Of a stretch of DNA of 64,000 nucleotides, positions 5,844-29,565 are shown piece after piece. The notes under the pieces are model-generated. The model saw only the letters and a list, made by a program, of their open reading frames with translations, did not search any database and was not told where the DNA came from. The DNA comes from Aurantibacillus circumpalustris. Lineage in GTDB: Bacteria; Bacteroidota; Bacteroidia; B-17B0; Aurantibacillaceae. The stretch covers positions 930,001 through 994,000 of the forward strand of contig NZ_CP121197.1 of assembly GCF_029625215.1 (NCBI RefSeq). Direction: 5' to 3'. How positions within the stretch are numbered: position 1 is the first letter of the stretch; each line of letters opens with the position of its first letter. A program made the position numbers and the translations under genes.

Positions 5844-6710
5844 ATGAGACAACTAAAAATTACCAAGCAAATCACCAACCGTGAAACGGCCTCTTTAGAC
5901 ATGTATCTGCAAGATATTGGTCGCGTTGAGTTAATTACAGCTCAAGACGAGGTTATTCTGGCACAAAAAATCAGAACTGGAGATCAAAAAGCGCTAGACA
6001 AACTGGTGAAAGCTAATTTGCGCTTTGTAGTTTCAGTAAGTAAACAATATCAAAATCAAGGTTTAAGTTTGCCAGATCTCATTAATGAAGGAAATTTTGG
6101 ACTTATTAAAGCGGCTCAACGCTTTGATGAAACGCGTGGTTTTAAATTTATCTCTTATGCAGTGTGGTGGATTCGTCAAAGTATTTTACAGGCTCTGGCA
6201 GAACAAAGTCGTATTGTGCGCTTGCCCTTAAACAAAATTGGCGCCATCAACAAAATAAATAAAACAATGTCTAAGTTGGAGCAGGATCTAGAACGTGAAC
6301 CGAGCTACAATGAGTTGAGCGAGATCTTAGACATGCTTCCGCAAGACATTCGCGACACTATGCGTAATCAAAATCGTCACATGAGTATGGACGCTCCTTT
6401 AAGCAGCAACGAAGACGGCGGCAGTTTGTACGACCTAATGCATAATGAATCCTCACAAAACCCAGACAGACTTTTGCTGACTGAAAGTTTACAAATGGAA
6501 ATTTTCAGGGCACTAAACACTTTAACAGAAAGAGAAGCCGATGTTGTTAAACTATTTTTTGGCCTCGCCGGCAAACACGCGCATTCTTTGGAAGAGATCG
6601 GCGAAAAATTTCAATTAACCCGCGAGCGCGTGCGCCAGATCAAAGAAAAAGCTGTACGTCGTTTAAAACACGGATCAAGAAGCAGATTACTGAAGGCTTA
6701 TTTGGGCTAA
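5844..6710 (+). CDS. rpoD: Primary RNA polymerase sigma factor RpoD (short Bacteroidota type)
   Basis: This 288-residue housekeeping sigma-70 factor directs RNA polymerase to the Bacteroidota promoter type. Region 1.2 is visible ([16 protein letters not shown]), region 2 with the -10 recognition and melting helix ([20 protein letters not shown] and AVWWIRQSI), region 3, and region 4 with its helix-turn-helix ([19 protein letters not shown]). Region 1.1 is absent, as usual for this phylum. It is a monocistronic gene divergent from recN and followed by a terminator hairpin. Confidence 0.95.
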
Positions 6711-6745
6711 TATTCTTCCGTTTCTTTACCCTCTCTTTAATAACA

Positions 6746-6781
6746 AACGATCTTCTCAATGAGACGGTCGTTTTTTATTTT
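6746..6781 (+). terminator. Rho-independent terminator of rpoD
   Basis: The hairpin spans 6746-6772 (AACGAtC... paired with ...gTCGTT) with one wobble pair and one mismatch. A T-rich tract follows to 6781, 35 bp after the rpoD stop. Confidence 0.75.
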
Positions 6782-6816
6782 ATTGAAAAGCGTTCGATTT
6801 CACAAAACAAATACCG

Positions 6817-6824
6817 TATTTTTG
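6817..6824 (+). promoter_or_regulatory. -7 box of the acyltransferase gene
   Basis: TATTTTTG matches TAnnTTTG and ends only 5 bp before the ATG at 6830. If used, transcription would start at or within a few bases of the start codon, giving a leaderless or near-leaderless mRNA. The -33 element is weak. Confidence 0.4.
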
Positions 6825-6829
6825 GTACT

Positions 6830-8005
6830 ATGAGCCTTCAGCGTGTTAGGTATTTAGATGGGCTAAGAGGTGTATTAGCTATTATCGTTTTTCTGCATCA
6901 TTTTTTTTATGCATTCTGTCCCGACCTTATTTTTGGCGGCAAATACGACTATTACCTTCATACGGGTCCGTTATCGTTTTATAAAATAATGGCATTAACG
7001 CCCATCAATATTTTTTTTAATCCAGGTTTTGCCATTCATTTTTTCTTTTTATTAAGTGGCTATGTACAAACACGTAATTATTTTTTACAACCGAATATTT
7101 CATTTCTACAAAAAAGTCTTTTAAAACGCTACTTCCGTCTAGCGGTGCCGGTTTTATCTGCTGTCCTCTTGGTTTTTTTTTCACACCGCTTTTTTTTAAT
7201 TCGAAAAGATCTTATTCCATTTAATGAACTTACCAGCGATTGGGTAAAAAGTTTAGTGCCAAATAATTTACATTTTTTTGAAGTCATTAAAGAAGGGCTT
7301 TCTGATTGTTTTCGTGGCAACTCCCGTTATTACCAGGTGCTATGGACAATGTCTACTGAACTCATTAATTCCTTTGTAGTTTTAGGTCTTTTGTTAGTGC
7401 TTCACAACCTGAAACATCAAGTAAAAATAATTGTGTTTTTAATTTTAGTACAACTTGTTGTACTTCAAGAATATTACAGTGTAGCCTTTGTAGCAGGAAC
7501 ATTATTTGCCAAATTAGAAGTAAATTCTGGGGGGTTTAAAAAAATTCTTTCAAACCGTTTGGTGCATTTTTTATGTTTGATTTTAGGAATTTATTTTGCG
7601 TCATACCCTTTTACAGGCTATCAGAATGCGGCAGCACATTCTTTTTACGCGCCCATTTCTTTTTTTGAAGTGTACCCACATGTAATTAGTTATCTCATTG
7701 GTGTTGTTTTTTTGTTTTGTTTTTTATTGTACTCCAATATGTTCCAAAAATTTTTATCTAAAAAATTATTCATGTTTTTTGGAGAGATTTCTTTTATGTT
7801 TTATTTAATTCATTTACTATTACTTCTAAGTTTTACGCCTTGGGTCTATCATAAATTTTCGAATCCTAATGATGACGGACTTGGTTTATTCATTACCGGT
7901 ATTGTTAGTCTCGTTGTTGTAACTCTTGCGTCTTATATATTAACACGTTTAATCGATGCGCCAACTATTAAACTAAGCAATCGTTTGGTGAAACGTTTTT
8001 TTTAG
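6830..8005 (+). CDS. Acyltransferase-3 family membrane O-acyltransferase
   Basis: This 391-residue polytopic protein has about ten hydrophobic segments. It begins RVRYLDGLRGVLAIIVFLHH, the family hallmark with Arg and the catalytic-site His pair in the first membrane helix. The OafA/NodX/YrhL family moves acetyl or other acyl groups from the cytosol onto sugars or lipids of the envelope. The gene is the first of the accessory region, 103 bp before the AMP ligase. It could modify the product of that region or an unrelated glycan; the sequence does not decide. Confidence 0.82.
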   Translation: MSLQRVRYLDGLRGVLAIIVFLHHFFYAFCPDLIFGGKYDYYLHTGPLSFYKIMALTPINIFFNPGFAIHFFFLLSGYVQTRNYFLQPNISFLQKSLLKRYFRLAVPVLSAVLLVFFSHRFFLIRKDLIPFNELTSDWVKSLVPNNLHFFEVIKEGLSDCFRGNSRYYQVLWTMSTELINSFVVLGLLLVLHNLKHQVKIIVFLILVQLVVLQEYYSVAFVAGTLFAKLEVNSGGFKKILSNRLVHFLCLILGIYFASYPFTGYQNAAAHSFYAPISFFEVYPHVISYLIGVVFLFCFLLYSNMFQKFLSKKLFMFFGEISFMFYLIHLLLLLSFTPWVYHKFSNPNDDGLGLFITGIVSLVVVTLASYILTRLIDAPTIKLSNRLVKRFF

Positions 8006-8041
8006 CTACAATTTGTTTAACATCAAAAGTGTTTGGTATAA

Positions 8042-8058
8042 AAAACACTGCGTGTTTT
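8042..8058. terminator. Weak AT-rich hairpin between acyltransferase and ligase genes
   Basis: AAAACAC and GTGTTTT form a perfect 7-bp stem around TGC, followed by an AT-rich but interrupted T tract. Termination is possible but weak, since the two flanking genes run in the same direction. Confidence 0.35.
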
Positions 8059-8108
8059 ATTATAAAAAGATTGATTACTGAAACACGTTTTTTTGTTTAA
8101 TTTTACGC

Positions 8109-9551
8109 ATGAATGATATTTTAGTGTATAAAACACTAAGCGATGCTGCTGAAAAATGGCCTGATTTACCGGCTGTTCATGATGAATTTGGGACACTCAG
8201 CTTCAAAGAGCTCTTCATAGAAACCGAAACCTTAAAATTTAAACTTAAAACACTTGGAATTGCGCCCGGAATGGGAGTTGGCGTAATGGCAAGAAATGGC
8301 AGGAATTTTATTAGCGCTATTTTTGCGGTAGTTGGTTGCGGCGCAGTGGTAATGCCTATTTCAAACCAACTTAAAAAAAGCGAACTCGATACTCTTCTTT
8401 CTGAGTCCAAATTAAACGCTATCCTTGATGATAGACACGGCGTTGCCCCTGTTGAAGTTTCCGGCGAAAACATTAAAATGTCAGTAGAATCCTTCCGCTT
8501 TGCATTTACTTCTGTTTCAAAAAAACACATATTTGCACCCCATGTTAAAGATGCTGCGTTTATTCGATTCACTTCCGGCACAACCGGCAAATCGAAAGGC
8601 GTAGTAATTTCCAACAAATCTGCCATTGAACGCGTTGATGCTGCGAACAAGGTATTAAAGCTTGGAACAAACGATACTGTAATATGGGTTTTACCCATCG
8701 CCTATCATTTTGTGGTTTCTATTTTGCTCTATATTCGTTACGGCGCGGCGATAGCCATTGCAAAAAATTTTCTGCCAAAAAACATTATCGACATAACGAA
8801 TGCCCATAACGGCACTCTGCTTTACGCCTCTCCTATGCAAATTCGATTACTCGCTAATAACACCAATACCGATGGAATGCCTAGTCTTAAACGCGTCATT
8901 TCAACCTCTGCAGCTATTTCAACCGATATTTGCATTGCCTATAAAAAACGTTTCGGTATGGACGTCAGTCAAGCATACGGTATTATTGAAATTGGTTTGC
9001 CCTTAATAAATCATGTTAAATCAGAAGAGCATCCGGAAGCTGTAGGCTATGCGTTGCCTGATTATAACGTTGCCATTCTTGATGATAATTACAATCCGTT
9101 GCCTCCGGGTAAGCTGGGGCGACTTGGCATTAATGGTCCGGGCATGTTTGATGCTTATTTATCGCCACCTGTTTTAAGAAAAGATGTTTTAAAAAACGGT
9201 TATTTTTTAACTGCTGACTTTGCCACTATGAGCGCAGATGGCCTTGTTAAAGTAGAAGGCAGAGAAAAATCGGTTATCAATGTTTCGGGAAATAAAGTTT
9301 TTCCCGAAGAGGTAGAAGGCGTTTTAGAAACCATCCCCGAAATAAAACTGGCTCGAATAAGCGGCGCGCCACACCAATTAATGGGTCAAATCATTCAAGC
9401 TGAAGTTATACTGCACGAAGGAAAAACAATTGATGAAGAAGACGTGTTGACTTATTGCAGAAAGCGTTTGTCAACTTACAAAATACCTCAACGCATCAAA
9501 GTCGTAACATCATTGCCAATGACAGGAAGTGGGAAGCTTCAAAGGTATTAA
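8109..9551 (+). CDS. AMP-forming acyl/aryl ligase (ANL superfamily)
   Basis: This 480-residue adenylating enzyme activates a carboxylic acid as acyl-AMP and passes it to a thiol (CoA or a carrier protein). Core motifs are in order: FIRFTSGTTGKSKGVV (A3, phosphate loop), AYGIIEIGLP (A5), YFLTADFA (A7, TGD replaced by TAD), GREKSVINVSGNKVFPEE (A8 hinge) and MTGSGKLQR (A10 with catalytic Lys). It is shorter than most acyl-CoA synthetases (about 500-570 residues). A stand-alone carrier protein and a condensation-type enzyme lie 4 kb downstream, so loading of that carrier is an attractive inference. The carboxylate specificity cannot be read by eye. Its stop abuts the stop of the convergent crtZ gene with no intervening base. 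Confidence 0.85.
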   Translation: MNDILVYKTLSDAAEKWPDLPAVHDEFGTLSFKELFIETETLKFKLKTLGIAPGMGVGVMARNGRNFISAIFAVVGCGAVVMPISNQLKKSELDTLLSESKLNAILDDRHGVAPVEVSGENIKMSVESFRFAFTSVSKKHIFAPHVKDAAFIRFTSGTTGKSKGVVISNKSAIERVDAANKVLKLGTNDTVIWVLPIAYHFVVSILLYIRYGAAIAIAKNFLPKNIIDITNAHNGTLLYASPMQIRLLANNTNTDGMPSLKRVISTSAAISTDICIAYKKRFGMDVSQAYGIIEIGLPLINHVKSEEHPEAVGYALPDYNVAILDDNYNPLPPGKLGRLGINGPGMFDAYLSPPVLRKDVLKNGYFLTADFATMSADGLVKVEGREKSVINVSGNKVFPEEVEGVLETIPEIKLARISGAPHQLMGQIIQAEVILHEGKTIDEEDVLTYCRKRLSTYKIPQRIKVVTSLPMTGSGKLQRY

Positions 9552-9995
9552 TCACTGAAAGTACTTTTTGTTTACAATTAAAAAGCCAAAAGCTTCGCCA
9601 TTCTCTTTATCTAAATGCTTATGATGCATTTTGTGAGCCCTTCTAACAGCTTTAACATATTTGTTGTCTAACTTCCTGAACCATTTTACACGCTGATGCA
9701 CAATAATGTCGTGTACCAAAAAATATGCGGCTCCATATGCGGTCATGCCTGAACCAATCCAAATACTTACAGGGCTTTGGTAAATAACACCTAACATAAT
9801 AAACAACCAACTTGGAATTGCAAAAACAAAAGCAAAAAGATCGTTTTTCTCAAAAAAACCTTTGTGTCCAACATGGTGACTTTTATGCAGTGACCATAAG
9901 AGGCCGTGCATAATATACTTATGCGAGAACCAAGCAACACCTTCCATGCTTAAAAAGGTTAAAATGAAAATTCCAACATACACAACCAACATCAT
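9552..9995 (-). CDS. crtZ: Beta-carotene hydroxylase, CrtZ type
   Basis: This 147-residue membrane di-iron hydroxylase of the fatty-acid hydroxylase superfamily shows the His clusters HKYIMH, HKSHHVGH, HDIIVH and HKMHHKH in CrtZ spacing. CrtZ enzymes hydroxylate the beta rings of carotenoids at C3 (for example to zeaxanthin). Four hydrophobic stretches are seen. It is divergent from the CrtI-like desaturase gene (251-bp intergenic region), supporting a carotenoid role for this pair, although phytoene synthase and cyclase are not in the window. Confidence 0.85.
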   Translation of the reverse strand: MMLVVYVGIFILTFLSMEGVAWFSHKYIMHGLLWSLHKSHHVGHKGFFEKNDLFAFVFAIPSWLFIMLGVIYQSPVSIWIGSGMTAYGAAYFLVHDIIVHQRVKWFRKLDNKYVKAVRRAHKMHHKHLDKENGEAFGFLIVNKKYFQ

Positions 9996-10146
9996 TACAA
10001 AATCATAGTTTTAAGTCTCAAAATTAATAAAATTTAGGCTACTTTTTAAACTAAACATCTTCTAAAACAATACTAATTATAACTTGTTTAAATTACTTTT
10101 TAATCATTAATCGATAAAATAGTCCTTACTGGTTTTAACAAGTTTC

Positions 10147-10173
10147 TTGAACTACTTTTTGTTAGTATGTTTA
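10147..10173 (+). promoter_or_regulatory. Possible promoter of the CrtI-like gene
   Basis: TTG (10147-10149), a 16-bp spacer and TATGTTTA (10166-10173) approximate the Bacteroidota TTG-N17-23-TAnnTTTG promoter, 73 bp before the ATG. The spacer is one short and the last base is off. Confidence 0.3.
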
Positions 10174-10246
10174 AAAGATACGCTATTCATGAAGCATACT
10201 TTCGCTCTTTTTAATAATTTTGGGGGATTAAAATTAAGGCCTATCT

Positions 10247-11722
10247 ATGATTAAAGAAAACGATAAAACCTGCGCCGTTATTGGGTCGGGTGTTTCAGGA
10301 ATTGCCGCAGCAATTAGGATGAGAAACAAAGGCTACCGTGTTGTTGTGTTTGAGGCTAACTCATTTCTTGGTGGTAAACTTTCTTCTGAAACCAACAAAG
10401 GATACCGCTTTGATATGGGGCCTTCTGTTTTCACGTTCCCTGAATATGTGGATGAGCTCTTTATTCTTTCTGGAAAAAACCCAAGAGATTACTTTAATTA
10501 TGATCGATTGGACCCTGTGTTTCGTTATTTTTTTGAAGACGGAACGTCGCTGGAAAGTTTTGACGGAAAAGAAAAATACGCATCCGAATTAGCGCCAAAA
10601 ACTAAGGATACTAAAGAGGCTATTTTAAACTATCTTGATAAAACAGAAAAGATGTATGACTTAACCGCCGAGGTTTTTCTGCATAATTCCTTACATAAAT
10701 TCAAAAACTATTTTACAAAAGCTGTAGCAAAAGGCTTACTTAATTTTGGAAAGATTGGCGCTTTTGATACTATGAACGGTGCAAATGAAAAAGCATTTAA
10801 AGACAAGCGCCTTGTTCAAATCTTTAACCGCTATTCCACCTACAATGGCTCAAGCCCTTATCTTGCGCCAGCTACACTTAATGTTATTCCTCACGTTGAA
10901 ATTGTAAAAGGCGCTTATTACCCTCATGGCGGCATGCATAGTATTACCAAGTCACTTGTTCAACTAGCAAAAGAAATAGGTGTTGTTTTTAAATTTAATT
11001 CTCCTGTAAGAGAGATTGTGGTTGAAAACAATTTAACAAAAGGAATAAAAACAGACAATGGCTTTGAGGGCTTTGATGTGGTAATAAGCAACATGGATGT
11101 TTATAACACTTACCACAAGCTATTACCTTCTTGTAAAAAACCAGAAAAATTACTTAACCAGCCTAAGTCCAGCTCTGGCATTATTTTTTATTGGGGAATA
11201 AAACGTCGTTTTGACGAGTTAAGCCTTCACAATATTTTATTCAGCGAAAATTATCGTGAAGAATTTGAAACAATTTTTACAAAAAACAGCATTTACAAAG
11301 ACCCTAGCATATACATCAACATAACCTCAAAACACTCTCCTGGCGATGCTCCCGAGGGTTGTGAAAACTGGTTTACCTTTATTAACGTAACAAATAATCA
11401 AGGACAAGACTGGGACAAATTTGTAAATGAGTCTCGTGAACACGTTATCAATAAAATAAATCGCATTTTAAAAACCGACATCCGCAAGCTCATTGAGTGT
11501 GAAATGGTTTTTGATCCACGGGTTATCGAAAGTCGCACCTCCAGTGCATTTGGAGCAATCTATGGCAATAGCTCTAATAATAAGTTTTCTGCATTTTTAA
11601 GACATCCTAATTTTTCAAAAAAAATAAAGAACCTCTATTTCTGTGGCGGAAGCGTTCATCCAGGGCCAAGCATACCTTTGTGTTTGCTTTCTGCTAAAAT
11701 TACAACAAGTCTAATAAAATAA
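10247..11722 (+). CDS. CrtI/CrtD-like FAD-dependent carotenoid desaturase
   Basis: This 491-residue protein has the N-terminal dinucleotide-binding motif VIGSGVSGIAAAIRMRNKGY, then LGGKLSS and FDMGPSVFTFP, which are typical of the phytoene-desaturase family. The C-terminal FAD motif reads NLYFCGGSVHPGPSIPLCLL. The GGSVHPG...PLCLLSAKI ending is the version I associate with Bacteroidota second-copy desaturases (CrtD-like, acting on 1-hydroxycarotenoids) rather than with primary CrtI, but this is family memory, not proof. The divergent neighbour is crtZ. Either carotenoid tailoring or a dedicated oxidation of the nearby pathway's product is possible. Confidence 0.8.
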   Translation: MIKENDKTCAVIGSGVSGIAAAIRMRNKGYRVVVFEANSFLGGKLSSETNKGYRFDMGPSVFTFPEYVDELFILSGKNPRDYFNYDRLDPVFRYFFEDGTSLESFDGKEKYASELAPKTKDTKEAILNYLDKTEKMYDLTAEVFLHNSLHKFKNYFTKAVAKGLLNFGKIGAFDTMNGANEKAFKDKRLVQIFNRYSTYNGSSPYLAPATLNVIPHVEIVKGAYYPHGGMHSITKSLVQLAKEIGVVFKFNSPVREIVVENNLTKGIKTDNGFEGFDVVISNMDVYNTYHKLLPSCKKPEKLLNQPKSSSGIIFYWGIKRRFDELSLHNILFSENYREEFETIFTKNSIYKDPSIYINITSKHSPGDAPEGCENWFTFINVTNNQGQDWDKFVNESREHVINKINRILKTDIRKLIECEMVFDPRVIESRTSSAFGAIYGNSSNNKFSAFLRHPNFSKKIKNLYFCGGSVHPGPSIPLCLLSAKITTSLIK

Positions 11723-11797
11723 ACAATAGCTTTGATTCTTAGCGATATCAACCACTTCTAATTTAGCATTCGCTCATTAGATGCCCCTTTATTTTTA

Positions 11798-11805
11798 TAT
11801 ATTTG
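11798..11805 (+). promoter_or_regulatory. -7 box of the ABC-exporter operon
   Basis: TATATTTG matches TAnnTTTG and lies 16 bp upstream of the ATG at 11822, implying a leader of about 10 nt. No clear -33 TTG is seen. Confidence 0.4.
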
Positions 11806-11821
11806 CTGCCTCAAATACGGT

Positions 11822-12574
11822 ATGAGTAACACACCAATTGTTGAAATAGATACACTCACCAAAACCTTTAAAGGCTCTTTAGAAGCTGCGGTGAAAGGCG
11901 TATCTTTTACCATAAATAAAAACGAAGTGTTTGGATTGTTAGGTCCTAATGGAGCTGGTAAAACAACTATCATTTCCATTTTATGCGGACTTTATTCTCC
12001 TACAAGCGGTAATGTTAAGATTGATGGCATGAGTTTGGATAAAAATCAAGCAGAGATCAAACAAATTATTGGTGTAGTGCCACAAGACATAGCGCTTTAT
12101 CCTACTCTTACGGCAAAAGAAAATCTTGACTTTTACGGTGCCATGTATGGTTTATCAGGCAATAATCTCAAAGAAAAAATAAACATCTGGTTAGAAAAGC
12201 TCGGATTAACGCAAGCTGCGAACAGAAAAATAGAAACCTTTTCAGGAGGAATGAAAAGGCGTGTTAATTTAATTGCAAGTATTTTACACGAACCTAAAAT
12301 ATTATTCTTGGATGAACCCACTGTAGGTGTTGATGTTCAATCTAGAAATGTGATCATTGAACACTTAAAAGAGTTAAACAAACAAGGTACCACAATTGTA
12401 TATACTTCGCACCACTTAGATGAAGCCCAATATTTTTGCACACAAATTGCAATTATCGATTACGGGAAAATATTAACGCACGGTTCCCCTTCAGAACTTG
12501 TTCAAAATACTCCCGGTTGCACAGACCTGGAAGACGTTTTTTTAAGTTTAACTAAACGCAAGCTCAGAGACTAA
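11822..12574 (+). CDS. ABC-2 type exporter, ATP-binding subunit
   Basis: This 250-residue nucleotide-binding subunit powers export of an unknown substrate across the inner membrane. Walker A is GPNGAGKTT, the Q-loop is in GVVPQDIALYPTLTAKEN, the signature is FSGGMKRR, and Walker B with D-loop is ILFLDEPTVGVD. It is the first gene of a five-gene run (ATPase, permease, carrier protein, condensation enzyme, FAD oxidoreductase). Its stop overlaps the permease start (TAATG). Drug/lipid exporter subfamilies (CcmA/YadG-like) look most similar. Because the partner genes are biosynthetic, the substrate is probably the pathway product. Confidence 0.9.
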   Translation: MSNTPIVEIDTLTKTFKGSLEAAVKGVSFTINKNEVFGLLGPNGAGKTTIISILCGLYSPTSGNVKIDGMSLDKNQAEIKQIIGVVPQDIALYPTLTAKENLDFYGAMYGLSGNNLKEKINIWLEKLGLTQAANRKIETFSGGMKRRVNLIASILHEPKILFLDEPTVGVDVQSRNVIIEHLKELNKQGTTIVYTSHHLDEAQYFCTQIAIIDYGKILTHGSPSELVQNTPGCTDLEDVFLSLTKRKLRD

Positions 12575-13863
12575 TGAGATATAAGATTTGGGCCGCCATA
12601 AAAAAAGAGATTCTTATCCTGATAAGAGATAGAATCGGCTTGTCTATTTTGTTTCTTATGCCCATGATCTTGATTTTCGTTATGACGCTTATTCAAGATT
12701 CTGCATTTAAAAGCATTAATGAAAAAGGTATTCCGATTGTGCTTTTAGATAATGATCGCGATAGCTTAGGAATATACATAAAGAAAGGGTTACAAAGTTC
12801 TTCATTGTGTTCTTTGCATGACTCTATTGACGGCTTGCCGGCAACGGCCGAGTTAATTAAAAGATCTGTTTCAGAAGGAAAGTTTATTATTGGTATTGTA
12901 ATCCCAAAAGGTGCTACAGAAGCTATAAGAAAAAATGTAAGCTCCCTTGTGAGTGAAGCTCTAGCGACAGATCCTCCTAAAAACATTAAAGTCTCAACAG
13001 ATTCTGTAAATGTGCTTATCTACATTGATCCTGTTTCAAAAAAATCCTTTATTTCTTCAGTCACCAGTAACTTACATGAATTTATTTCCGTTGTAAAAAC
13101 GCAGATAATGTTTCAAACTTTTTCTGAACAAATTCGTGAAGTAATGCCTGACAACACAAACGCTCCTAAGAACATTTATTCTAAATCACAAATTATTAAT
13201 TACAAAGAGATTTACGCCTCTAATCTTATTGGCGAAATGCTGCCAAACGCTGTACAACATAATGTTCCTGCTTGGACAATTTTTTCAATGTTTTTTATTG
13301 TGATTCCCCTTGCGGGAAGCATCATGAAGGAGAAAAAAGAGGGAAGTTCTTTCCGCATTCGTACAATGCCAAGTAGTTATTTGATATTGGTGCTTGGTAA
13401 AATTATTGTTTACGTCTTTGTTTGTTTAATTCAGTTTCTGCTTATGCTGTCGGTTGGTTTGTACATTTTACCTTTGGTTGGCCTACCTGTGTTACAGTTA
13501 GGAAATAGTTACGCAGCCATTGCGCTTCTGGCGCTCGCAACTTCTTTTGCTGCCACGGGTTATGGCGTAATGGTAGGAACGCTTGCATCAAGTGAACAGC
13601 AGGGCGCTATTCTTGGTGCGCTTTCCATTTTACTTTTATCTGCGCTTGGCGGCGTTTGGGTGCCAACCTATGTCATGCCTGAAATAATGCGTCATATTAG
13701 TGTTCTATCGCCTTTAAACTGGTCGCTTGAAGGGTTTTACGCTTTGTTTTTAAGAGGATCTAATATGGCGGGTATTCTCATTCCCGCTCTAAAATTATTT
13801 CTATTTTTTATCTTTACCATGGGGCTTGCCTCAATAATTAATCGCGTTAAGCATAAAATATAG
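12574..13863 (+). CDS. ABC-2 type exporter, permease subunit
   Basis: This 429-residue permease has one N-terminal membrane helix (about residues 20-40), a large extracytoplasmic domain (about 45-225) and five or six C-terminal helices, the topology of the ABC-2 family. PMPSSY/RTMPSSYLILVLGK after the second helix is the conserved cytoplasmic coupling region. It begins on the overlapping TAATG with the ATPase gene and ends 7 bp before the carrier-protein gene. Products of such permeases include lipids, polyketides and drugs; the substrate here is unknown. Confidence 0.87.
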   Translation: MRYKIWAAIKKEILILIRDRIGLSILFLMPMILIFVMTLIQDSAFKSINEKGIPIVLLDNDRDSLGIYIKKGLQSSSLCSLHDSIDGLPATAELIKRSVSEGKFIIGIVIPKGATEAIRKNVSSLVSEALATDPPKNIKVSTDSVNVLIYIDPVSKKSFISSVTSNLHEFISVVKTQIMFQTFSEQIREVMPDNTNAPKNIYSKSQIINYKEIYASNLIGEMLPNAVQHNVPAWTIFSMFFIVIPLAGSIMKEKKEGSSFRIRTMPSSYLILVLGKIIVYVFVCLIQFLLMLSVGLYILPLVGLPVLQLGNSYAAIALLALATSFAATGYGVMVGTLASSEQQGAILGALSILLLSALGGVWVPTYVMPEIMRHISVLSPLNWSLEGFYALFLRGSNMAGILIPALKLFLFFIFTMGLASIINRVKHKI

Positions 13864-13870
13864 CCCCTTT

Positions 13871-14125
13871 ATGGATACACCATTAATAGAAGCCGACTTA
13901 ATTCGCTTTTTAGAAAATAATATTTTATCTGAAGGCCAAAAACTATCAGCTGACAAAATATTACGCGATGTCGGGATCGACTCTTTTTCAATTGTAGAAA
14001 TACTTCTGTTTATTGAGCGAAAATATGGCTTTGTGATACCCGACGAGAAATTAATGCCAGAACATTTTAAAACAGTTCATACCATTGCCCTTCTTGTAAA
14101 AGAAATTAGCGAAAAAGGCAATTAA
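13871..14125 (+). CDS. Stand-alone acyl/peptidyl carrier protein
   Basis: This 84-residue four-helix carrier carries the phosphopantetheine attachment site in VGIDSFSIVEILLF, with Ser38 following the invariant Asp. Acidic helix II residues fit the ACP fold. It is not the fatty-acid synthase ACP: it lies between an exporter permease (7-bp gap) and a condensation-type enzyme (5-bp gap) and has no fab genes nearby. It probably holds the acyl or aminoacyl intermediate loaded by the AMP ligase at 8109-9551. A cognate phosphopantetheinyl transferase is not in the window. Confidence 0.88.
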   Translation: MDTPLIEADLIRFLENNILSEGQKLSADKILRDVGIDSFSIVEILLFIERKYGFVIPDEKLMPEHFKTVHTIALLVKEISEKGN

Positions 14126-14130
14126 ATTTA

Positions 14131-15441
14131 ATGATGCCAAAATTTACATTTCCAAAAAAAGTCTATTTAAGCGGTCCTGATTGTTTTTACCTAGTGCTGG
14201 AAGCCAATGCTCAAAAACACCAAACCGGAAACAATGTTGTTCGCATGGTTTTACACTTTGAAGACGATGTGAAAGCAAAACAACTTATTGAAAATGCACA
14301 CCAATCACCGCTTGTTCACTGGCTCTGTAACATTACTTTACAAAAAGGATTTTTATTTTTTAAACCTTACTGGAAGTATGCGGACGCAGGAAATAAATTA
14401 AAAATTACTGAACATGTCTTTGGTAACGACCATGGTATTCCTTCAGAAATATTAAATCGAAACATTCCACTTCAAAATTCTTGTCTGCTTGAATTTGATC
14501 TAATTAAATACACTTCAAATAAAACAACGCTTATTATTTCTTGGAATCATATTCTTATGGACGGAAGAGGTTCAGGCTTATTTATTAGGCATTTAGACAA
14601 TCCTTCCGTTGTCGACGAAAAAACATTCCCGCGATTTTTTCCTTCAAGCGAAAAAAAAATCTCTTTGTTCAAATACATCAAAAACATGTATGAGGTAAAG
14701 GCTTTTATAGAAAAATCTTCGCAAGCGCCTATTGCTACTGTGGCCTCAGAAGTAAAACCAACAAACAAAACGTTTAAACTAAAAACCTTTGCTTTCAGCA
14801 CGGCCGAAACAGAAACAATAACTAATAATGCTTTAAATAACGGCGCTAAGTTTGGAGCAAATGCTTTTTTAATGGCCTGTTGTGCGCAAGCTGTGAACAC
14901 AATAAATAACAAAAATAACAAAAAAGATACTATCTGGCTACCCGCTCCATACGACGGGAGGAAGCGCGGAGCGCAGGGACCAATTATTAGCAATTGTATT
15001 TTCTTTTTGTTTTACCGAATTTCTCCCAACGATTTAACAAGCATAAAACAAACAGTTGCCTGTATCAACAAACAAATGGCCGAACAACTTAAAATAGACA
15101 TGCCTAAAAAATACAACATGCTATTAAATATGATGCGGCATATACCTTTAAAAATTAACAGCTTTTTAACCATGCGTTCATCAAAAGGTGTTGTGGCTAG
15201 TTTTTTATTTTCATCGGCAGGAGACAGTTTTCGTGACATGTCTGGCTTACTTAACGACACTATTTCTGAAATCAACATTATTCCACCATTTACTTATCCT
15301 CCCGGGTTGACATTTTCTTTTTTACGACAAAACAATTTGCTTAAAATGAACTTACTTTATTGTGAAAACAATTTTAATACAGATGAACTATCTTTACTTG
15401 AGTCTAGTGTACAAAATAATCTTCTTCAAAATTACTCGTGA
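14131..15441 (+). CDS. Condensation-domain/CAT-like acyltransferase
   Basis: This 436-residue protein resembles the CoA-dependent acyltransferase superfamily (NRPS condensation domains, WES/DGAT, PapA). The active-site segment is WNHILMDGRG, with catalytic His140 and structural Asp144-Gly145. The first His of the usual HHxxxDG is Asn here. A later APYDGRKRG and NCIFFLFYRI region resembles the DFGWG-side half of the fold, but no exact DFGWG is visible. No membrane helix is apparent. Placed directly after a carrier protein, it is likely to join the carrier-bound acyl group to an amine or alcohol acceptor. Donor and acceptor are unknown. The stop overlaps the next gene's GTG start by four bases. 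Confidence 0.75.
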   Translation: MMPKFTFPKKVYLSGPDCFYLVLEANAQKHQTGNNVVRMVLHFEDDVKAKQLIENAHQSPLVHWLCNITLQKGFLFFKPYWKYADAGNKLKITEHVFGNDHGIPSEILNRNIPLQNSCLLEFDLIKYTSNKTTLIISWNHILMDGRGSGLFIRHLDNPSVVDEKTFPRFFPSSEKKISLFKYIKNMYEVKAFIEKSSQAPIATVASEVKPTNKTFKLKTFAFSTAETETITNNALNNGAKFGANAFLMACCAQAVNTINNKNNKKDTIWLPAPYDGRKRGAQGPIISNCIFFLFYRISPNDLTSIKQTVACINKQMAEQLKIDMPKKYNMLLNMMRHIPLKINSFLTMRSSKGVVASFLFSSAGDSFRDMSGLLNDTISEINIIPPFTYPPGLTFSFLRQNNLLKMNLLYCENNFNTDELSLLESSVQNNLLQNYS

Positions 15442-16691
15442 TTAATGTTAGCACAGATATTTTAATTGTTGGCGGCGGATCGGCGGGAATTGCCGCCGCG
15501 GTTTCTGCTGCTGAGGAGGGTTACGGTGTTTGTCTCATAGAACGTAACGATTATCTTGGAGGAAAAGCAACCGCCGCAGAGGTAGGAACTATTTGCGGAT
15601 TATATAAATTTAGCAAAAATGAAAAAACAGAATTTGTAACGGGTGGTTTTGCAAAAGAATTCGCTCTTAAATTAGCTCAATTATCAAATACATCACCACT
15701 TAACAATGTTCACGGACTTCATTACTTGCCTTATGACATAGAAAAATACAAAAGCCTTTCGATTAAATTTATCGAAAATCATAAAGTCAATGTTTATTTT
15801 AATTCGGACATAATAAGCGCACAGACAAACAATAAAACTATCATGGTCGTTGTGATTAAAACCATTGATAAGGAAATACATATCTCCTGTAAATCAGTAA
15901 TAGACTGCTCTGGAAACAGTCATATCAGTCAACTAACGCATTCCCCTCTCATTACTAGTGATAATTACCAGGCGGCCGCACAAGTTTTTACATTAGAAGG
16001 AATAAATCCTATATCTGAATTAGCCTTAGGGCTTCTGTTAATTAAAGAAATTAAAAAAGCGGTAGTCAACAATACGCTAACAAGCGATTATGAAAAACTT
16101 TACCTCGTTCAAGGTTCCATAAAAAACAACAAGGCAAGTTTTAAACTAGCCGTTCCTGCAACGGTAACAGAGCAAGAATTGAACTCAAGTTTCTTGCGAG
16201 ATGTTGCCGTCGAAATGATCTCCTGTTTGGTAAATTATTTAAATACTCATGTTGATTTCTTTAAAAACTCTAAATTATTTAGTATCGCTCCGGAAACCGG
16301 AATTCGCACGGGAGTTCGACCTATAGGAAAATACATTTTAAGCGAAAACGATGTACTTACATGTAAAAAATTTGAATCAGGAATTGCCAATGGAGCCTGG
16401 CCTATTGAAGAATGGGGTCAGAATAAACAGGTTAAGATGCGTTACTTTAATGAAAATGATTTTTACCAAATACCGGCAGATTGTTTGAAGTCTATTGAAA
16501 TCACTAATCTCTTCTTTGCTGGAAGGAATATTTCCGCAGACGATGGAGCAATTGCAAGCGCTCGTGTTATGGGCATCTGTTTTCAGACAGGCTACGCGGC
16601 TGGCAAACTAGCAGCAAATTTTATTTCAGGAAACGCTGAAATAAAAACGATAGCGTCTATCCGAGAAAAACAGGTCGTAATTGCGCGCTAA
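15438..16691 (+). CDS. FAD-dependent oxidoreductase (FAD_oxidored family)
   Basis: The gene starts at GTG inside GTGA, overlapping the preceding stop; no ATG in frame gives the conserved N-terminus. The 417-residue protein has the FAD motif ILIVGGGSAGIAAAVSAAEE, then ERNDYLGGKATAAEVG and ICGLY. The closing motif is FFAGRNISADDGAIASARVM with GYAAGKLAA. The family oxidises or reduces diverse small molecules. As the last gene of the run it is a plausible tailoring enzyme for the carrier-bound or released product. No membrane segment or signal peptide is seen. Confidence 0.82.
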   Translation: MINVSTDILIVGGGSAGIAAAVSAAEEGYGVCLIERNDYLGGKATAAEVGTICGLYKFSKNEKTEFVTGGFAKEFALKLAQLSNTSPLNNVHGLHYLPYDIEKYKSLSIKFIENHKVNVYFNSDIISAQTNNKTIMVVVIKTIDKEIHISCKSVIDCSGNSHISQLTHSPLITSDNYQAAAQVFTLEGINPISELALGLLLIKEIKKAVVNNTLTSDYEKLYLVQGSIKNNKASFKLAVPATVTEQELNSSFLRDVAVEMISCLVNYLNTHVDFFKNSKLFSIAPETGIRTGVRPIGKYILSENDVLTCKKFESGIANGAWPIEEWGQNKQVKMRYFNENDFYQIPADCLKSIEITNLFFAGRNISADDGAIASARVMGICFQTGYAAGKLAANFISGNAEIKTIASIREKQVVIAR

Positions 16692-16793
16692 AATTAAGCA
16701 GCTTTATTAAAACCCTTTTGTTTAGAAGATTTTGCATGGCCTTTAACCAGCGTTATACAACTTGTTACATTTAGTTTTTGTAGATTAATTAAA

Positions 16794-17846
16794 ATGAAAC
16801 ACGTTTTAATCTTTATTGCCCTTCTTTCTTTTGGCTTTCTTAAGTCACAAGACACTGTGAAGGTGGCTCTGAACCTTGATCCGGAGCAGATGGCCGAACA
16901 AGATTACAACAGGGGCTTAGATGCTTTAAAAGCTAATGATTATTATTCAGCCATTACTCTTTTCTCCAAATGCCTTTCAGTAAAACCTCAGTTTGATAAA
17001 GCTTACGCGAATAGGGCAATTGCCTTAACGAATTTACAAAAATACGACGAAGCGCTTATTGATATTAACAAAGCCATAGCTATTTCGCCAGAGAATCCAG
17101 ACAACTATTTTAATAAAAGTCTTGTTTTTATGCGTCTTCATTTAAAAGATAGTCAGAACGTTGCTCTTGATATTTGTTTAAAATTAAACGGCGAACATGC
17201 CGAAGCTTCTTACTACAGAGGTTTAATGTATTATGAATCGGGGGATTTTGACAAGGCTATCGGGTACTATTCTGTGGCTATTCTTTCTAATAGAAATTAT
17301 TCTTTTGCCTACAATGACAGGGCAAGTGCCAAAAGGGCCAAAGGGAATATTGACGGGGCCATTGAAGATTACGAAAAGGCATTAATTATTGACAGTTCGC
17401 ATGCGTTTATTTATAACAACATTGGCTCAGCCTACAGACTAAAAAAAAGCTATACAAAGGCTATTGAAGCATATTCAAAAGGACTTAAAATGGATCCCAA
17501 TTATCTCATCGCTTTAAATAACAGAGGCATAGCCTACTTTGAGAACGGTGACTTAAAATCGGCTCAAGCAGATTTTGAAACAGTGCTAACACAGGACTCT
17601 AAAAACTCGTCAGCATACAATAACCTATGTTCTATCGCTATTAAAACTCAAGATTACAAAAAAGCCCGCGAACTATCTACGAGAGCAATAGAGTTAGATC
17701 CAAAAAATGGTCCCGCTTATTATAACCGAGGCATAGCGCGTCAATTGTTAAGGGAAGAAGAAGGTTGTTGCGCCGACTGGAGAAAAGCTTTAGAGTTAGG
17801 GGTAAATGGAGCCAAAGCTTTTATTAACGCAACCTGCTTTGATTAA
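16794..17846 (+). CDS. Secreted TPR-repeat protein
   Basis: An N-terminal signal peptide (about 18 residues, ending LKSQ) precedes a 350-residue protein of about eight to nine tetratricopeptide repeats (for example AYANRAIALTNLQKYDEAL, AYNNLCSIAIKTQDYKKA). TPRs are protein-interaction scaffolds. The gene lies 15 bp upstream of the PorE-like OmpA-family gene and is probably co-transcribed, so it may be a periplasmic partner of that protein. The exact role is unknown. Confidence 0.8.
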   Translation: MKHVLIFIALLSFGFLKSQDTVKVALNLDPEQMAEQDYNRGLDALKANDYYSAITLFSKCLSVKPQFDKAYANRAIALTNLQKYDEALIDINKAIAISPENPDNYFNKSLVFMRLHLKDSQNVALDICLKLNGEHAEASYYRGLMYYESGDFDKAIGYYSVAILSNRNYSFAYNDRASAKRAKGNIDGAIEDYEKALIIDSSHAFIYNNIGSAYRLKKSYTKAIEAYSKGLKMDPNYLIALNNRGIAYFENGDLKSAQADFETVLTQDSKNSSAYNNLCSIAIKTQDYKKARELSTRAIELDPKNGPAYYNRGIARQLLREEEGCCADWRKALELGVNGAKAFINATCFD

Positions 17847-24347: not shown

Positions 24348-26234
24348 TTAACGACCAAGGTGAATTAAAAGGACAGACACATCTGCAGGATTTATTCCGG
24401 AAATGCGGCTAGCTTGTCCAATGGTCGCTGGCTTAAACTTCTTTAGTTTTTCTTTCGCCTCAGCGCCCAAGCCTCCAACAGTATCAAAATTAAAATCAGA
24501 ATTTATTACTAAATCCTCCAGGCGTTTTAATTTGTCGGCATTCTCTCTTTCTCTTTCGATATAACCTTCGTACTTCATCAAAATCTCCGCTTGTTGAAGA
24601 ACATCTATTTTATACTCCAACATCGAGGCCTTTAAATTTGGATCATTTTTGACAATATCAGGAATACCAATATTTGGTCTAGAAAGTATTGTATTATACC
24701 TCAACTTTTGATTTATTGTTGCTGATCCAATTGATTCTAAAAAAGGGTTTAATGTTTCCGGTTCACAACTTGTGTTTTTAAAATAGGAGATAACCTTATT
24801 GTAATTTGAAACCTTTTCATTAACTGTATTAAATCGATCTTCGCTTGCCAAACCAATTGCGTGAGAAATTGGTGTTAACCTAACATCAGCATTATCTTGT
24901 CTTAACAATAAGCGATACTCTGCTCTTGATGTAAACATACGATAAGGTTCGTCGGTGCCCTTGGTTACTAAATCATCAATTAAAACGCCAATGTACGCTT
25001 CGTACCTATTTAGTACTAAAGGTTTCTCTTCGTTAATTTTTAGATGCGCATTTATTCCCGCCATCAAGCCTTGACAAGCGGCTTCTTCATATCCTGTTGT
25101 TCCGTTAATTTGCCCAGCAAAATAAAGGTTTTCTATTAAATGCGTTTCAAGTGTTAATTTTAATTGAGTAGGGGGGAAGTAATCGTATTCAATAGCGTAT
25201 CCAGGACGAAACATCTTTGCGCTCTCCATTCCAGGAATCAACCTTAATGCTTTTTGTTGTACATCTTCTGGTAAGGAAGAAGAAAACCCATTTAGATAAA
25301 TTTCAACTGTGTTCCATCCTTCAGGTTCAACAAAAAGCTGATGCCTATCTCGTTCGCTAAAACGCGTAATCTTATCTTCAATACTCGGACAATATCTTGG
25401 ACCAAGGCCTTGAATCCTCCCCTGGAACATAGGAGATTTTTCAAAACCAGTTTTAAGGATATCGTGTACTTTCTGATTTGTATAGGTAACATGACAAGGT
25501 ATTTGTTTTTTTGGATTTTCTCCGATAAAAGGAGATGTCCCTTCCAAATACGAAAACTTATCGATTACCTCGTCCCCACCTTGAACTTCCATTTTAGAAT
25601 AATCCAAAGACCTTCCGTCTATTCTTGGAGGAGTTCCCGTTTTCATTCTACCGCTCTCAAATCCTATTTGGACTAACTGTTCCGTTATTCCGTGGCTTGC
25701 AGATTCACCAGTTCTACCTCCTCCTAATTGTTTTTCTCCAATATGAATAATACCATTTAAAAAAGTGCCATTAGTAAGTACAACTGCTTTTGCTCTAAAC
25801 TCCATCCCCATACCAGTCACAATTCCTTCCACGCGTTTACCGTCGTCAGAAATTATCAACTGTCTTACCATGTCTTGCCAGAAATCTACATTAGTAGTTT
25901 GTTCCAACATTTCGCGCCAAAGGCCAGCAAACATCATCCTATCGTTTTGAGTTCTCGGGCTCCACATGGCCGGGCCTTTGCTTCGGTTTAACATCCTAAA
26001 CTGAATAGCACTTTTGTCAGAAACAATACCACTATAACCTCCAAGTGCGTCAATTTCACGAACAATTTGGCCTTTAGCAATGCCTCCCATAGCAGGATTA
26101 CAGCTCATTTGCGCAATAGTCTGCATATTCATTGTCACCAATAAAACCTTAGAGCCCATGTTGGCAGCGGCGGCGGCTGCCTCACAACCAGCGTGTCCAG
26201 CACCTACAACAATAATATCGTATGAATTTTGCAA
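24348..26234 (-). CDS. mnmG: tRNA uridine-5-carboxymethylaminomethyl modification enzyme MnmG (GidA)
   Basis: MnmG, with MnmE, installs the cmnm5 group on wobble U34 of tRNAs using FAD and methylenetetrahydrofolate. The N-terminal FAD motif is YDIIVVGAGHAGCEAA. GGGRTGESASHG, GTPPRIDGRSLDYS and the C-terminal helical domain ending SGINPADVSVLLIHL are all present. No ATG is available. TTG at 26234 gives MQNSYDII, which fits the family start, whereas the further TTG at 26249 lies inside a TATCTTTG -7 promoter box. The shorter form (about 628 residues) is therefore preferred. mnmG is frequently origin-proximal, in keeping with the parS sites beside it. Confidence 0.95.
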   Translation of the reverse strand: MQNSYDIIVVGAGHAGCEAAAAAANMGSKVLLVTMNMQTIAQMSCNPAMGGIAKGQIVREIDALGGYSGIVSDKSAIQFRMLNRSKGPAMWSPRTQNDRMMFAGLWREMLEQTTNVDFWQDMVRQLIISDDGKRVEGIVTGMGMEFRAKAVVLTNGTFLNGIIHIGEKQLGGGRTGESASHGITEQLVQIGFESGRMKTGTPPRIDGRSLDYSKMEVQGGDEVIDKFSYLEGTSPFIGENPKKQIPCHVTYTNQKVHDILKTGFEKSPMFQGRIQGLGPRYCPSIEDKITRFSERDRHQLFVEPEGWNTVEIYLNGFSSSLPEDVQQKALRLIPGMESAKMFRPGYAIEYDYFPPTQLKLTLETHLIENLYFAGQINGTTGYEEAACQGLMAGINAHLKINEEKPLVLNRYEAYIGVLIDDLVTKGTDEPYRMFTSRAEYRLLLRQDNADVRLTPISHAIGLASEDRFNTVNEKVSNYNKVISYFKNTSCEPETLNPFLESIGSATINQKLRYNTILSRPNIGIPDIVKNDPNLKASMLEYKIDVLQQAEILMKYEGYIERERENADKLKRLEDLVINSDFNFDTVGGLGAEAKEKLKKFKPATIGQASRISGINPADVSVLLIHLGR

Positions 26235-26246
26235 ATTAATTTTTTG

Positions 26247-26254
26247 CAAAGATA
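26247..26254 (-). promoter_or_regulatory. -7 box of mnmG
   Basis: TATCTTTG on the minus strand matches TAnnTTTG. It overlaps the distal TTG candidate start and lies 12 bp from the preferred TTG at 26234, implying a very short leader. No -33 TTG is seen at the usual spacing. Confidence 0.4.
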
Positions 26255-26343
26255 AAGATTAATTCCGCTATCGCATTACGTAAATACGACCAGCGCTAAT
26301 CGATAACAAAATTTAAAATTAATACAGGAACGATCGTTCTTGT

Positions 26344-26868
26344 TTATTCAATAGCATCCTGAAGCTTTTCCATTTTAGACTCCGAGAATTTACCACTTTG
26401 CATTTCAACAATTTTACCAGTTTTATCTAACACAAAAAAGTAAGGTATTTTATTATCCTCAATTCCTAATTGTTTTTGAACCCCTTTTATATCCGTTTTT
26501 TCGGTATCCATAATAAATGGCCAAAATGCTTTATCAGTACCTTTTTGAAAATCCTCTTTGATCATTTTAAATCCCGAAATCATCGGTACAAAAACAAAAT
26601 TAACATCAACTGGTTCTGACATATCGAAATTACCAGGTTTTTCCTTGCTCATAAAGTTATCATACAATGGGTTTAACCACTTCTTAAGGTCATCCTCAGC
26701 TCCACGATGAAAAGCAATAGCTACAACACTATACTTGCCGTTTTTTGCCGGTAGAGCACAAGCTTTCTCGTTTAGTGTTACACCTTTAACTTCTGGAAAT
26801 ATCTTTCCTTTTTGCGCACTAACGCTAATTGTGAGTATAGTGCAAATTAAAATTACTATTTTTTTCAT
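26344..26868 (-). CDS. Exported thioredoxin-fold protein without a CXXC motif
   Basis: A signal peptide (ends SVSAQ) precedes a 174-residue protein with a thioredoxin-like layout: YSVVAIAFHRGAEDDLKKW, a central strand NFVFVPMISG, and IPYFFVLDKTGKIVEMQSG, which contains the cis-Pro strand and C-terminal hairpin. The position of the redox CXXC carries no cysteine pair. The AFHRGAEDDLKKWLNPLY stretch recalls ATP10-type redoxin relatives, but I would not assign that function. It starts 10 bp downstream of rpiB on the same strand and is likely co-transcribed. Probably a periplasmic non-redox or chaperone-like thioredoxin fold. Confidence 0.65.
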   Translation of the reverse strand: MKKIVILICTILTISVSAQKGKIFPEVKGVTLNEKACALPAKNGKYSVVAIAFHRGAEDDLKKWLNPLYDNFMSKEKPGNFDMSEPVDVNFVFVPMISGFKMIKEDFQKGTDKAFWPFIMDTEKTDIKGVQKQLGIEDNKIPYFFVLDKTGKIVEMQSGKFSESKMEKLQDAIE

Positions 26869-26878
26869 ATTACTATAT

Positions 26879-27313: not shown

Positions 27314-27349
27314 AATTTATTATCTATTTACACTAATTGAATTATTTAT

Positions 27350-27357
27350 CAAAAATA
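27350..27357 (-). promoter_or_regulatory. -7 box of rpiB
   Basis: TATTTTTG on the minus strand matches TAnnTTTG, 37 bp before the rpiB ATG; no -33 TTG at usual spacing. It overlaps the second ACTAAT copy by one base. Confidence 0.35.
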
Positions 27358-29552: not shown

Positions 29553-29565
29553 AGGATAAAAATGT

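What the first reader, a model, noticed from the sequence alone, without database searches (positions are those of the whole stretch)
11822..16691. Unrecognised exporter-carrier-condensation-oxidoreductase operon without a ketosynthase
Five genes in one tight operon encode an ABC-2 exporter pair, a stand-alone carrier protein (Ser38 site), a condensation-type acyltransferase (His140, Asp144) and an FAD oxidoreductase, joined by 1-nt and 4-nt overlaps and 5-7 bp gaps. An AMP ligase lies 2.3 kb upstream across a carotenoid pair. There is no ketosynthase, ketoreductase or multi-modular NRPS, so this is not an obvious flexirubin, aryl-polyene or classical NRPS locus. A minimal carrier-based pathway that activates one acid, condenses it, oxidises it and exports it is the simplest model. 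The product is unknown and may be new.
Basis: partly seen in the sequence, partly recalled or inferred. Interest (0 to 1): 0.72.

Follow-up and report, generated by a model that had tools for sequence, protein, structure and literature searches.

The report
Mobile carrier-protein cassette for carotenoid decoration
Eight neighbouring genes, including two that make late changes to an orange carotenoid pigment, appear to have entered this bacterium together and probably attach an unknown acid to that pigment and move it outward, which would be a new way for bacteria to decorate carotenoids.

Summary
They are one conserved system: of 38 loci with a relative of the condensation-type gene, 11 keep the full order exporter pair–carrier–condensation–FAD, and all 11 have the AMP ligase directly after it. 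The carotenoid pair belongs to the unit: 18 of 38 loci carry a crtD. Here the block of about 8.0–16.7 kb (ligase, crtZ-like, crtD, five-gene operon) fills a site that is empty in a relative, its crtD is of foreign ancestry, and it supplies the crtZ and crtD that the genome's main carotenoid cluster lacks. Best reading: a mobile tailoring cassette. The ligase loads an acid on the carrier, the flavoenzyme oxidises it, the condensation-fold enzyme transfers it to a saproxanthin-type carotenoid, the exporter moves the product. Unity and the carotenoid link are well supported; acid, acceptor, chemistry and export are inferred. 20 of 38 loci show no crtD (some on short contigs) and a few lie beside flexirubin/aryl-polyene-type genes, so the acceptor may differ there. 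My searches found no characterised cluster of this make-up. New variant of a known kind.

The parts
8109..9551 (+). LIG: AMP-forming acid ligase; in relatives it directly follows the FAD gene
   Evidence: AMP-binding 2.9e-52 + AMP-binding_C; adjacent to FAD in 22 of the 22 loci that have it, of 38; His200/Phe201 invariant in 22 of 22 aligned
9552..9995 (-). HYD: CrtZ-like carotene hydroxylase
   Evidence: FA_hydroxylase PF04116 1.5e-11; histidine motifs invariant in 6 of 6 aligned (CrtZ reading of the motifs recalled); only match in the genome; homologues in same-genus crt clusters
10247..11722 (+). CRTD: 1-hydroxycarotenoid 3,4-desaturase, not of genus ancestry
   Evidence: NF042421 1e-187, 624.4 bits over cut-off 500; 76% to the cassette-linked CrtD of L020, 51% or less to same-genus CrtDs; AU p 1.4e-7
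11822..12574 (+). ABCA: ABC-2 exporter ATPase
   Evidence: ABC_tran 2.6e-37; exporter pair next to ACP in 13 of 38 loci
12574..13863 (+). ABCB: ABC-2 exporter permease
   Evidence: ABC2_membrane_3 7.6e-26; its only strong paralogue in the genome lies in the flexirubin-type cluster (E 1.2e-67; next 2.4e-7)
13871..14125 (+). ACP: stand-alone carrier protein, phosphopantetheine site Ser38
   Evidence: PP-binding 27.2 bits over cut-off 20.8; G35, D37, S38 invariant in 21 of 21 aligned
14131..15441 (+). CON: stand-alone condensation-fold enzyme, probable acyltransferase
   Evidence: model pLDDT 89; VIA-align Z 30.4 (rmsd 3.7, 409 residues) to AzeD 8s6l, next row Z 27.0; H140, D144 invariant in 37 of 37 aligned
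15438..16691 (+). FAD: flavin oxidoreductase of the PF12831 family
   Evidence: FAD_oxidored 4.4e-67 over residues 7-406; model pLDDT 94; FAD-oxidoreductase folds Z 18.4-20.3 in the 50 rows shown
8006..16703 (.). extra block between OAT (6830-8005) and TPR (16794-17846); edges approximate
   Evidence: relative G010 (L166) has OAT then TPR 120 bp apart; blastn alignment resumes at window 16703 there, and at 16689 and 16702 in two other relatives

Best explanation
A mobile carrier-protein tailoring cassette for a monocyclic, saproxanthin-type carotenoid. LIG adenylates a carboxylic acid (probably not an ordinary alpha-amino acid) and loads it on ACP Ser38; FAD oxidises the tethered acid; CON, using His140, passes the acyl group from ACP to a hydroxyl of the carotenoid that CrtY, CruF, CrtD and CrtZ make; the ABC-2 pair moves the finished amphipathic pigment across the inner membrane. 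Shown here: the genes, predicted folds, motifs, conserved order, co-occurrence with crtD, presence as one extra block, and that crtD and crtZ are in the block and not in the main crt cluster. Inferred: the acid, the acceptor hydroxyl, the order of oxidation and transfer, the export.
For: Full order with LIG in 11 of 38 loci; LIG beside FAD in 22 of 22 loci having LIG. crtD in 18 of 38 loci and on 6 of 11 further contigs. Cassette and crtD distances agree (Spearman 0.85 CON/CRTD, 15 loci; 0.96 ABCB/CRTD, 8 loci). Extra block between OAT and TPR, empty in G010; SIG next to TPR in G008. Order crtY-crtZ-cruF-crtD in 6 of 8 same-genus crtD loci (all 8 have crtD beside cruF), but crtY-cruF without crtZ and crtD here; no other HYD or strong CrtD in the genome; window crtD not with genus crtDs. 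CON absent from 36 of 36 same-genus genomes, FAD from 24 of 24. Five loci have a halogenase-like gene next to ACP-CON in place of FAD/LIG/ABC, 4 of 4 full copies with WxWxIP, which fits modification of a tethered acyl group. CrtY, CruF, CrtD, CrtZ activities shown for Nonlabens (PMC11855829, passages).
Against: 20 of 38 loci show no crtD in the fetched flank (some are short contigs, such as L023, L036, L043, L050); the loci of other phyla (L038, L054; L043 shows nothing upstream of its ACP) and both Saprospiraceae loci lack it, so the core need not act on a carotenoid. In L020, L034, L035, L054, and weakly L036, the core lies beside flexirubin/aryl-polyene-type genes. Only 8 of 24 same-genus genomes examined have a strong CrtD at all, and G010, which has the empty site, has none: the missing crtD of the main cluster may be older than the block. 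The best fold match of CON is titled a dehydratase. CON is below Pfam's cut-off. G+C of the block is not unusual. No carotenoid ester of this kind is known to me.
Confidence: 0.42

Rival explanations
1. The cassette makes and exports its own small lipid or acid derivative that is not attached to a carotenoid; crtD and crtZ ride along because both belong to an outer-membrane or light-protection island and are selected together.
For: Core genes occur without a visible crtD in 20 of 38 loci and in other phyla; the exporter pair gives the product its own route.
Against: Repeated adjacency to crtD on distant branches (at least 7 changes over 31 rows of the CON tree); the block holds the crtZ and crtD that the main crt cluster lacks, so its crt genes serve the main pathway.
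Confidence: 0.26
2. The cassette is an accessory of flexirubin/aryl-polyene pigments: it adds or alters the aryl head or the ester partner of the polyene made by the second cluster at 4.523-4.554 Mb.
For: ABCB's only strong paralogue lies in that cluster; in L020 the cassette plus crtD lies between flexirubin-type ketosynthase genes and LolA/deacetylase/ketosynthase genes; L034, L035 and L054 carry FabA-like, GT2/DUF2062, LolA, DUF3261 or MMPL neighbours, L036 a GT2 and an acyltransferase.
Against: In this genome the two clusters are about 3.6 Mb apart on the contig (about 1 Mb if it is circular); crtD, not polyene genes, is the commoner neighbour. The passages that I saw of the Chitinophaga flexirubin paper name no such set among its genes (PMC3992019), though they do not list the whole cluster.
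Confidence: 0.17
3. CON is not an acyltransferase but a stand-alone condensation-fold dehydratase or isomerase acting on the ACP-bound acid; the product is released by another route.
For: Best structural match is AzeD, titled a dehydratase, Z 30.4, rmsd 3.7 over 409 residues, 3.4 above the next row.
Against: Sequence link to AzeD is weak (E 0.046; the PDB molecule name there is a dimycocerosyl transferase); PapA5 and wax ester synthase also match (Z 24.7 and 23.4); no thioesterase among the block's genes, so release by transfer is the simplest.
Confidence: 0.13
4. Unrelated genes that happen to be neighbours.
For: CON stands without FAD, LIG and ACP neighbours in L023, L033 and L037.
Against: Order kept in 11 loci; one extra block; co-divergence.
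Confidence: 0.02

Closest known systems
Saproxanthin / myxol / flexixanthin carotenoid pathway (CrtB, CrtI, CrtY, CruF, CrtD, CrtZ)
   Same: The genome holds this enzyme set; crtD and crtZ are in the block (the CrtI label rests on its place and on a match to the CrtD profile).
   Different: In the passages seen, the described clusters name no ACP, condensation, FAD or ligase genes (PMC11855829 and PMC10784355).
Carrier-bound acid activation, oxidation and transfer, as in aminocoumarin pyrrole (CouN/CloN) or petrobactin AsbC-D-E (recalled)
   Same: Ligase, stand-alone carrier, flavoenzyme and transferase; the ACP's two best NCBIfam models are AmcB (41.4 bits, cut-off 80) and AsbD (35.6 bits, cut-off 100), both below cut-off.
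   Different: Flavoenzyme is PF12831, not an acyl-CoA-dehydrogenase type; setting is a carotenoid locus.
Flexirubin / aryl polyene clusters
   Same: Homologous ABC-2 exporter pair in this genome's own flexirubin-type cluster; some cassettes sit beside such genes.
   Different: No ketosynthase, ketoreductase or dehydratase in the cassette.
AzeD (8s6l), P. aeruginosa azetidomonamide pathway
   Same: Closest fold to CON, Z 30.4, 409 residues, 12% identity.
   Different: Sequence profile only E 0.046; pathway and neighbours differ (recalled).

Membership tests
Condensation-domain superfamily (C / PapA / WES / BAHD fold) | chloramphenicol-acetyltransferase-like two-lobe fold over full length | tested here: met
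   AF2 model; VIA-align Z 22.8-30.4 in the 50 rows shown, among them C domains, PapA5, WES and TRI3
Condensation-domain superfamily (C / PapA / WES / BAHD fold) | HxxxD active-site motif | tested here: met
   H140 and D144 in 37 of 37 aligned
Pfam Condensation PF00668 | score over the curated cut-off | tested here: not met
   22.1 bits against 30.6
Modular NRPS | C, A and T domains on one chain | tested here: not met
   separate ORFs
Flexirubin / aryl polyene cluster | ketosynthases, ketoreductase, dehydratase with aryl-acid starter enzymes | tested here: not met
   none among the 10 proteins of 5844-16691; present instead at 4.523-4.554 Mb
Carotenoid CrtD | NF042421 equivalog cut-off (500 bits) | tested here: met
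   624.4 bits
CrtZ carotene hydroxylase | FA_hydroxylase domain with conserved histidine boxes, homologues in crt clusters | tested here: met
   no NCBIfam model matched; activity not tested
NRPS A domain for alpha-amino acids | Asp at the GrsA-235 position | tested here: inconclusive
   by hand alignment the position is His200 in 22 of 22 aligned; position assignment recalled, no structure of LIG made
PF12831 FAD_oxidored | score over the curated cut-off | tested here: met
   227.6 bits against 27
CouN/AsbCDE-type carrier-loaded acyl transfer | acid loaded on ACP and transferred to an alcohol or amine | not testable with these tools
   needs enzymology

The most novel reading that the evidence does not exclude
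A laterally mobile carrier-protein module that decorates carotenoids with an ACP-borne, flavin-oxidised (or, in a sister form, halogenated) acid and exports them, and that brings its own crtD/crtZ to complete the host's pathway: a new class of carotenoid conjugate in several Bacteroidota families, whose 38 named relatives found here are all metagenome-assembled genomes.
Probability: 0.37. Interest if true: 0.82.

Novelty: new variant of a known kind. Interest (0 to 1): 0.61.

Why it matters
Carotenoid end groups are usually finished by hydroxylases, ketolases, glycosyltransferases and membrane acyltransferases (established knowledge, recalled). A carrier-protein route would link assembly-line chemistry to carotenoids, predict a new pigment class that can be looked for by mass spectrometry, and show a tailoring unit that travels with the upstream enzymes on which it depends.

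Tried and rejected
CON by single sequence against the PDB found nothing; its profile gave NRPS C domains and, weakly, AzeD. FAD against the PDB matched essentially its dinucleotide-binding N-terminus; its fold neighbours (geranylgeranyl reductase-like, FasV, fumarate reductases, halogenases; Z 18.4-20.3 in the 50 rows) do not name a reaction. LIG against the PDB gave oxalate, malonyl and feruloyl ligases and NRPS A domains: no substrate can be named. Promoter-like and terminator-like sites were not in excess of shuffles. G+C gave no sign of foreign DNA in the block. I wondered whether LIG is the flexirubin starter ligase: I saw no AMP-binding gene in the stretch 4.520-4.555 Mb, but a partial AMP-binding match lies 5.5 kb before it (4514474), and LIG's constant place beside FAD elsewhere speaks against the idea. 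OAT (6830-8005) was set aside because relative G010 has it without the block. The A-domain/carrier pair at about 342-345 kb is a different cluster.

Literature: searches (open-access subset) listed no paper that I recognised as describing a cluster of this make-up; I judged this from titles and starts of abstracts, so it is no proof of absence. PMC3992019: outline, abstract, passages. PMC11855829 and PMC10784355: passages. PMC10880069: passages (its 'azed' matches were azedomonamide, not the AzeD enzyme). All other papers: listing only. Searches were for AzeD and the halogenase motif.

Limits of counts: the Mantel-type values do not remove shared species history; p 0.002 is the floor of 500 permutations; rows left out as partial or mis-started were L028, L046, L047, L053 (CRTD), L016, L041 (CON), L038, L040 (FAD). 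The change count left out seven loci as truncated (L021, L023, L025, L031, L036, L038, L043); L021 and L038 in fact show more than 7 kb upstream without crtD, so the plain 18 of 38 is the figure to use. L053's crtD is a fragment at a contig end. In one search the row cas_L092 is this genome's own CrtI-like protein, mislabelled; it and two long-branch genus rows (L120, L122) were left out of the AU test, which I ran after having seen the tree. My notebook says 7 of 8 same-genus crt clusters; the right count for the full order is 6 of 8. CON was found in 27 of 395 class genomes with a profile (E 1e-20) but only in the own genome of 395 phylum genomes with one sequence; the two draws differ, so sensitivity is not the sole cause. 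Of the 22 loci fetched were taken as repeats contigs because contig lengths agree; the other 11 are the further contigs. Of 20 other same-genus genomes with a TPR match I fetched 14; 4 of these keep SIG nearby and can show the site, 10 have another context.
Full report
What is there. Pfam and NCBIfam name an ABC ATPase, an ABC-2 permease, a carrier protein, a weak condensation domain and a PF12831 flavoenzyme. The weak condensation call was firmed up by structure: the model of 14131-15441 (pLDDT 89) matches condensation-superfamily structures along nearly its whole length, and H140/D144 are invariant in 37 of 37 aligned homologues. Upstream lie CrtD (10247-11722, same strand, 99 bp before the operon), a CrtZ-like hydroxylase (9552-9995, opposite strand) and an AMP ligase (8109-9551).

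One system, not five neighbours. A scan of the genome collection with a 4-row alignment gave 38 loci, all titled as MAGs. Among them: carrier in 33, FAD in 29, ligase in 22, exporter pair beside the carrier in 13. Eleven loci keep ABCA-ABCB-ACP-CON-FAD on one strand, and in all eleven the ligase follows FAD directly; wherever the ligase was found (22 of 22) it is beside FAD. So the window, with the ligase 2.3 kb upstream, is a rearranged form of a conserved six-gene set. Sequence distances of the parts agree (Spearman 0.49-0.85 among CON, ACP, FAD, LIG, ABCB), with the caveat of shared species history. A profile search found CON in 27 of 395 genomes of the class, the own one included, 10 of 196 genera (E 1e-20).

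The carotenoid genes belong to it. A crtD lies in 18 of 38 loci, and on 6 of 11 further contigs fetched afterwards. Strong CrtD matches are one per genome where present (17 of 41 genomes, E 1e-120), so a random 20-kb stretch of a 4-Mb genome would hold one in well under 1% of cases (my estimate). On the CON tree the crtD label changes at least seven times over 31 rows (seven loci left out, see Tried and rejected), so the link has been made or lost repeatedly.

An extra block. In the same genus CON is absent from 36 of 36 genomes examined (E 0.001) and FAD from 24 of 24 (E 1e-40). In relative G010 the gene before the block (OAT, 54% identical) and the gene after it (TPR) are 120 bp apart; in G008 the sigma-factor gene and TPR are 122 bp apart; in G016 and G017 another large ORF (943 and 941 aa) sits between them. 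Alignment with relatives resumes at window 16689-16703, the end of the FAD gene. The extra block is therefore about 8006-16703: ligase, crtZ, crtD, ABCA, ABCB, ACP, CON, FAD. Lateral arrival as a unit is the simplest reading; repeated loss in the genus is not excluded.

It completes the carotenoid pathway. Of 24 same-genus genomes examined, 8 have a strong CrtD. In 6 of these 8 loci the order is crtY-crtZ-cruF-crtD facing crtI-crtB, and in all 8 crtD is beside cruF. This genome's crt cluster at 1.018-1.036 Mb has a CarH-like regulator, crtY, cruF, a crtI-like gene and crtB, and no crtZ or crtD. The only HYD match and the only strong CrtD of the genome are in the block. The window's CrtD is 76% identical to the cassette-linked CrtD of a Ferruginibacter MAG (L020) and at most 51% to the genus copies; grouping it with the genus is rejected (lnL 96 lower, AU p 1.4e-7). 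The window HYD falls outside the genus clade (SH-aLRT 100), but its own place is unsure. Either the block replaced resident crtD and crtZ, or it restored steps that the lineage had already lost: G010, with the empty site, has no strong CrtD. Both readings tie the block to carotenoid synthesis.

Which pigment. CrtY with CruF gives 1'-hydroxy-gamma-carotene, CrtD then 1'-hydroxytorulene, and CrtZ turns deoxymyxol into myxol (shown for Nonlabens, PMC11855829, passages). The predicted pigment here is thus a 3,1'-diol of the saproxanthin type (inference; CrtA-OH and CrtW were not looked for).

How it may work. The ligase has a conserved His-Phe where alpha-amino-acid A domains have Asp (hand alignment, recalled numbering), so an aryl, cyclic or fatty acid is likelier than an amino acid. 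A flavoenzyme next to the carrier and CON, or in five loci a Trp_halogenase-type enzyme (Pfam tested on one; WxWxIP in 4 of 4 full copies, the fifth a fragment), is what one expects if the tethered acid is modified. CON then offloads it. The simplest acceptor, given the linkage, is a carotenoid hydroxyl. The ABC-2 pair is kin to the exporter pair in this genome's flexirubin-type cluster, which suggests an amphipathic, pigment-like cargo. Many loci also carry a sulfotransferase-family gene (17 of 38) and a DUF5686 protein (15 of 38); neither is in the window's block.

Against it. 20 of 38 loci show no crtD, among them the loci of other phyla and both Saprospiraceae loci, though some contigs are short (L043 starts at its carrier gene). 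In L020, L034, L035 and L054, and weakly in L036, the core lies beside flexirubin/aryl-polyene-type genes (LolA, DUF3261, FabA-like, GT2-DUF2062, MMPL, ketosynthases). So the core may serve different acceptors, or its product may be independent of carotenoids. CON's best fold match is titled a dehydratase. Acid, acceptor and chemistry remain untested.

Verdict. Observation confirmed; interpretation partly supported and extended. The unit (about 0.95) and its functional tie to carotenoids (about 0.75) are well supported; acyl transfer onto a carotenoid is the best single mechanism (about 0.42).

Noticed in passing
G000 C1 about 4.523-4.554 Mb (L017, L018): Flexirubin-type cluster: aromatic amino acid lyase, several ketosynthases, short-chain reductase, BtrH_N/DUF4872 protein, ABC-2 pair, polysaccharide deacetylase, LolA, GT2-DUF2062, MMPL-acyltransferase-methyltransferase fusion.
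   Followed up: partly
L014, L042, L044, L046, L047: Sister cassette crtD-halogenase-like-ACP-CON-sulfotransferase (DUF5686 after it in four of the five), without ligase, FAD or ABC pair; the L047 halogenase is fragmentary. May make a halogenated carotenoid conjugate.
   Followed up: partly
L091 (G000 C1:334000-352000): Separate small cluster: amino-acid-type A domain (TIGR01733, 300.4 bits, just under cut-off 317.4), carrier protein, GNAT, MBOAT, glycosyltransferase.
   Followed up: no
window 26000-32000: G+C falls to about 0.28 against 0.33-0.40 in 1-26 kb, with a swing in GC skew; possible foreign segment.
   Followed up: no
L153, L162 (same-genus relatives): The place filled by the block here holds another large ORF (943 and 941 aa) in two relatives, so it may be a variable site.
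   Followed up: no
L092: CarH-like MerR regulator with B12-binding domain (95.8 bits to the CarH model, cut-off 400) near crtY-cruF/crtI-crtB suggests light control of the carotenoid genes.
   Followed up: no
L054 (Deltaproteobacteria MAG): Core genes beside LolA, DUF3261, a hydrolase-radical SAM fusion and a B12-binding radical SAM enzyme: an unusual pigment-like locus.
   Followed up: no
L034:1099-3651: Two Fic/DUF4172 proteins in tandem near the cassette of a Saprospiraceae MAG.
   Followed up: no
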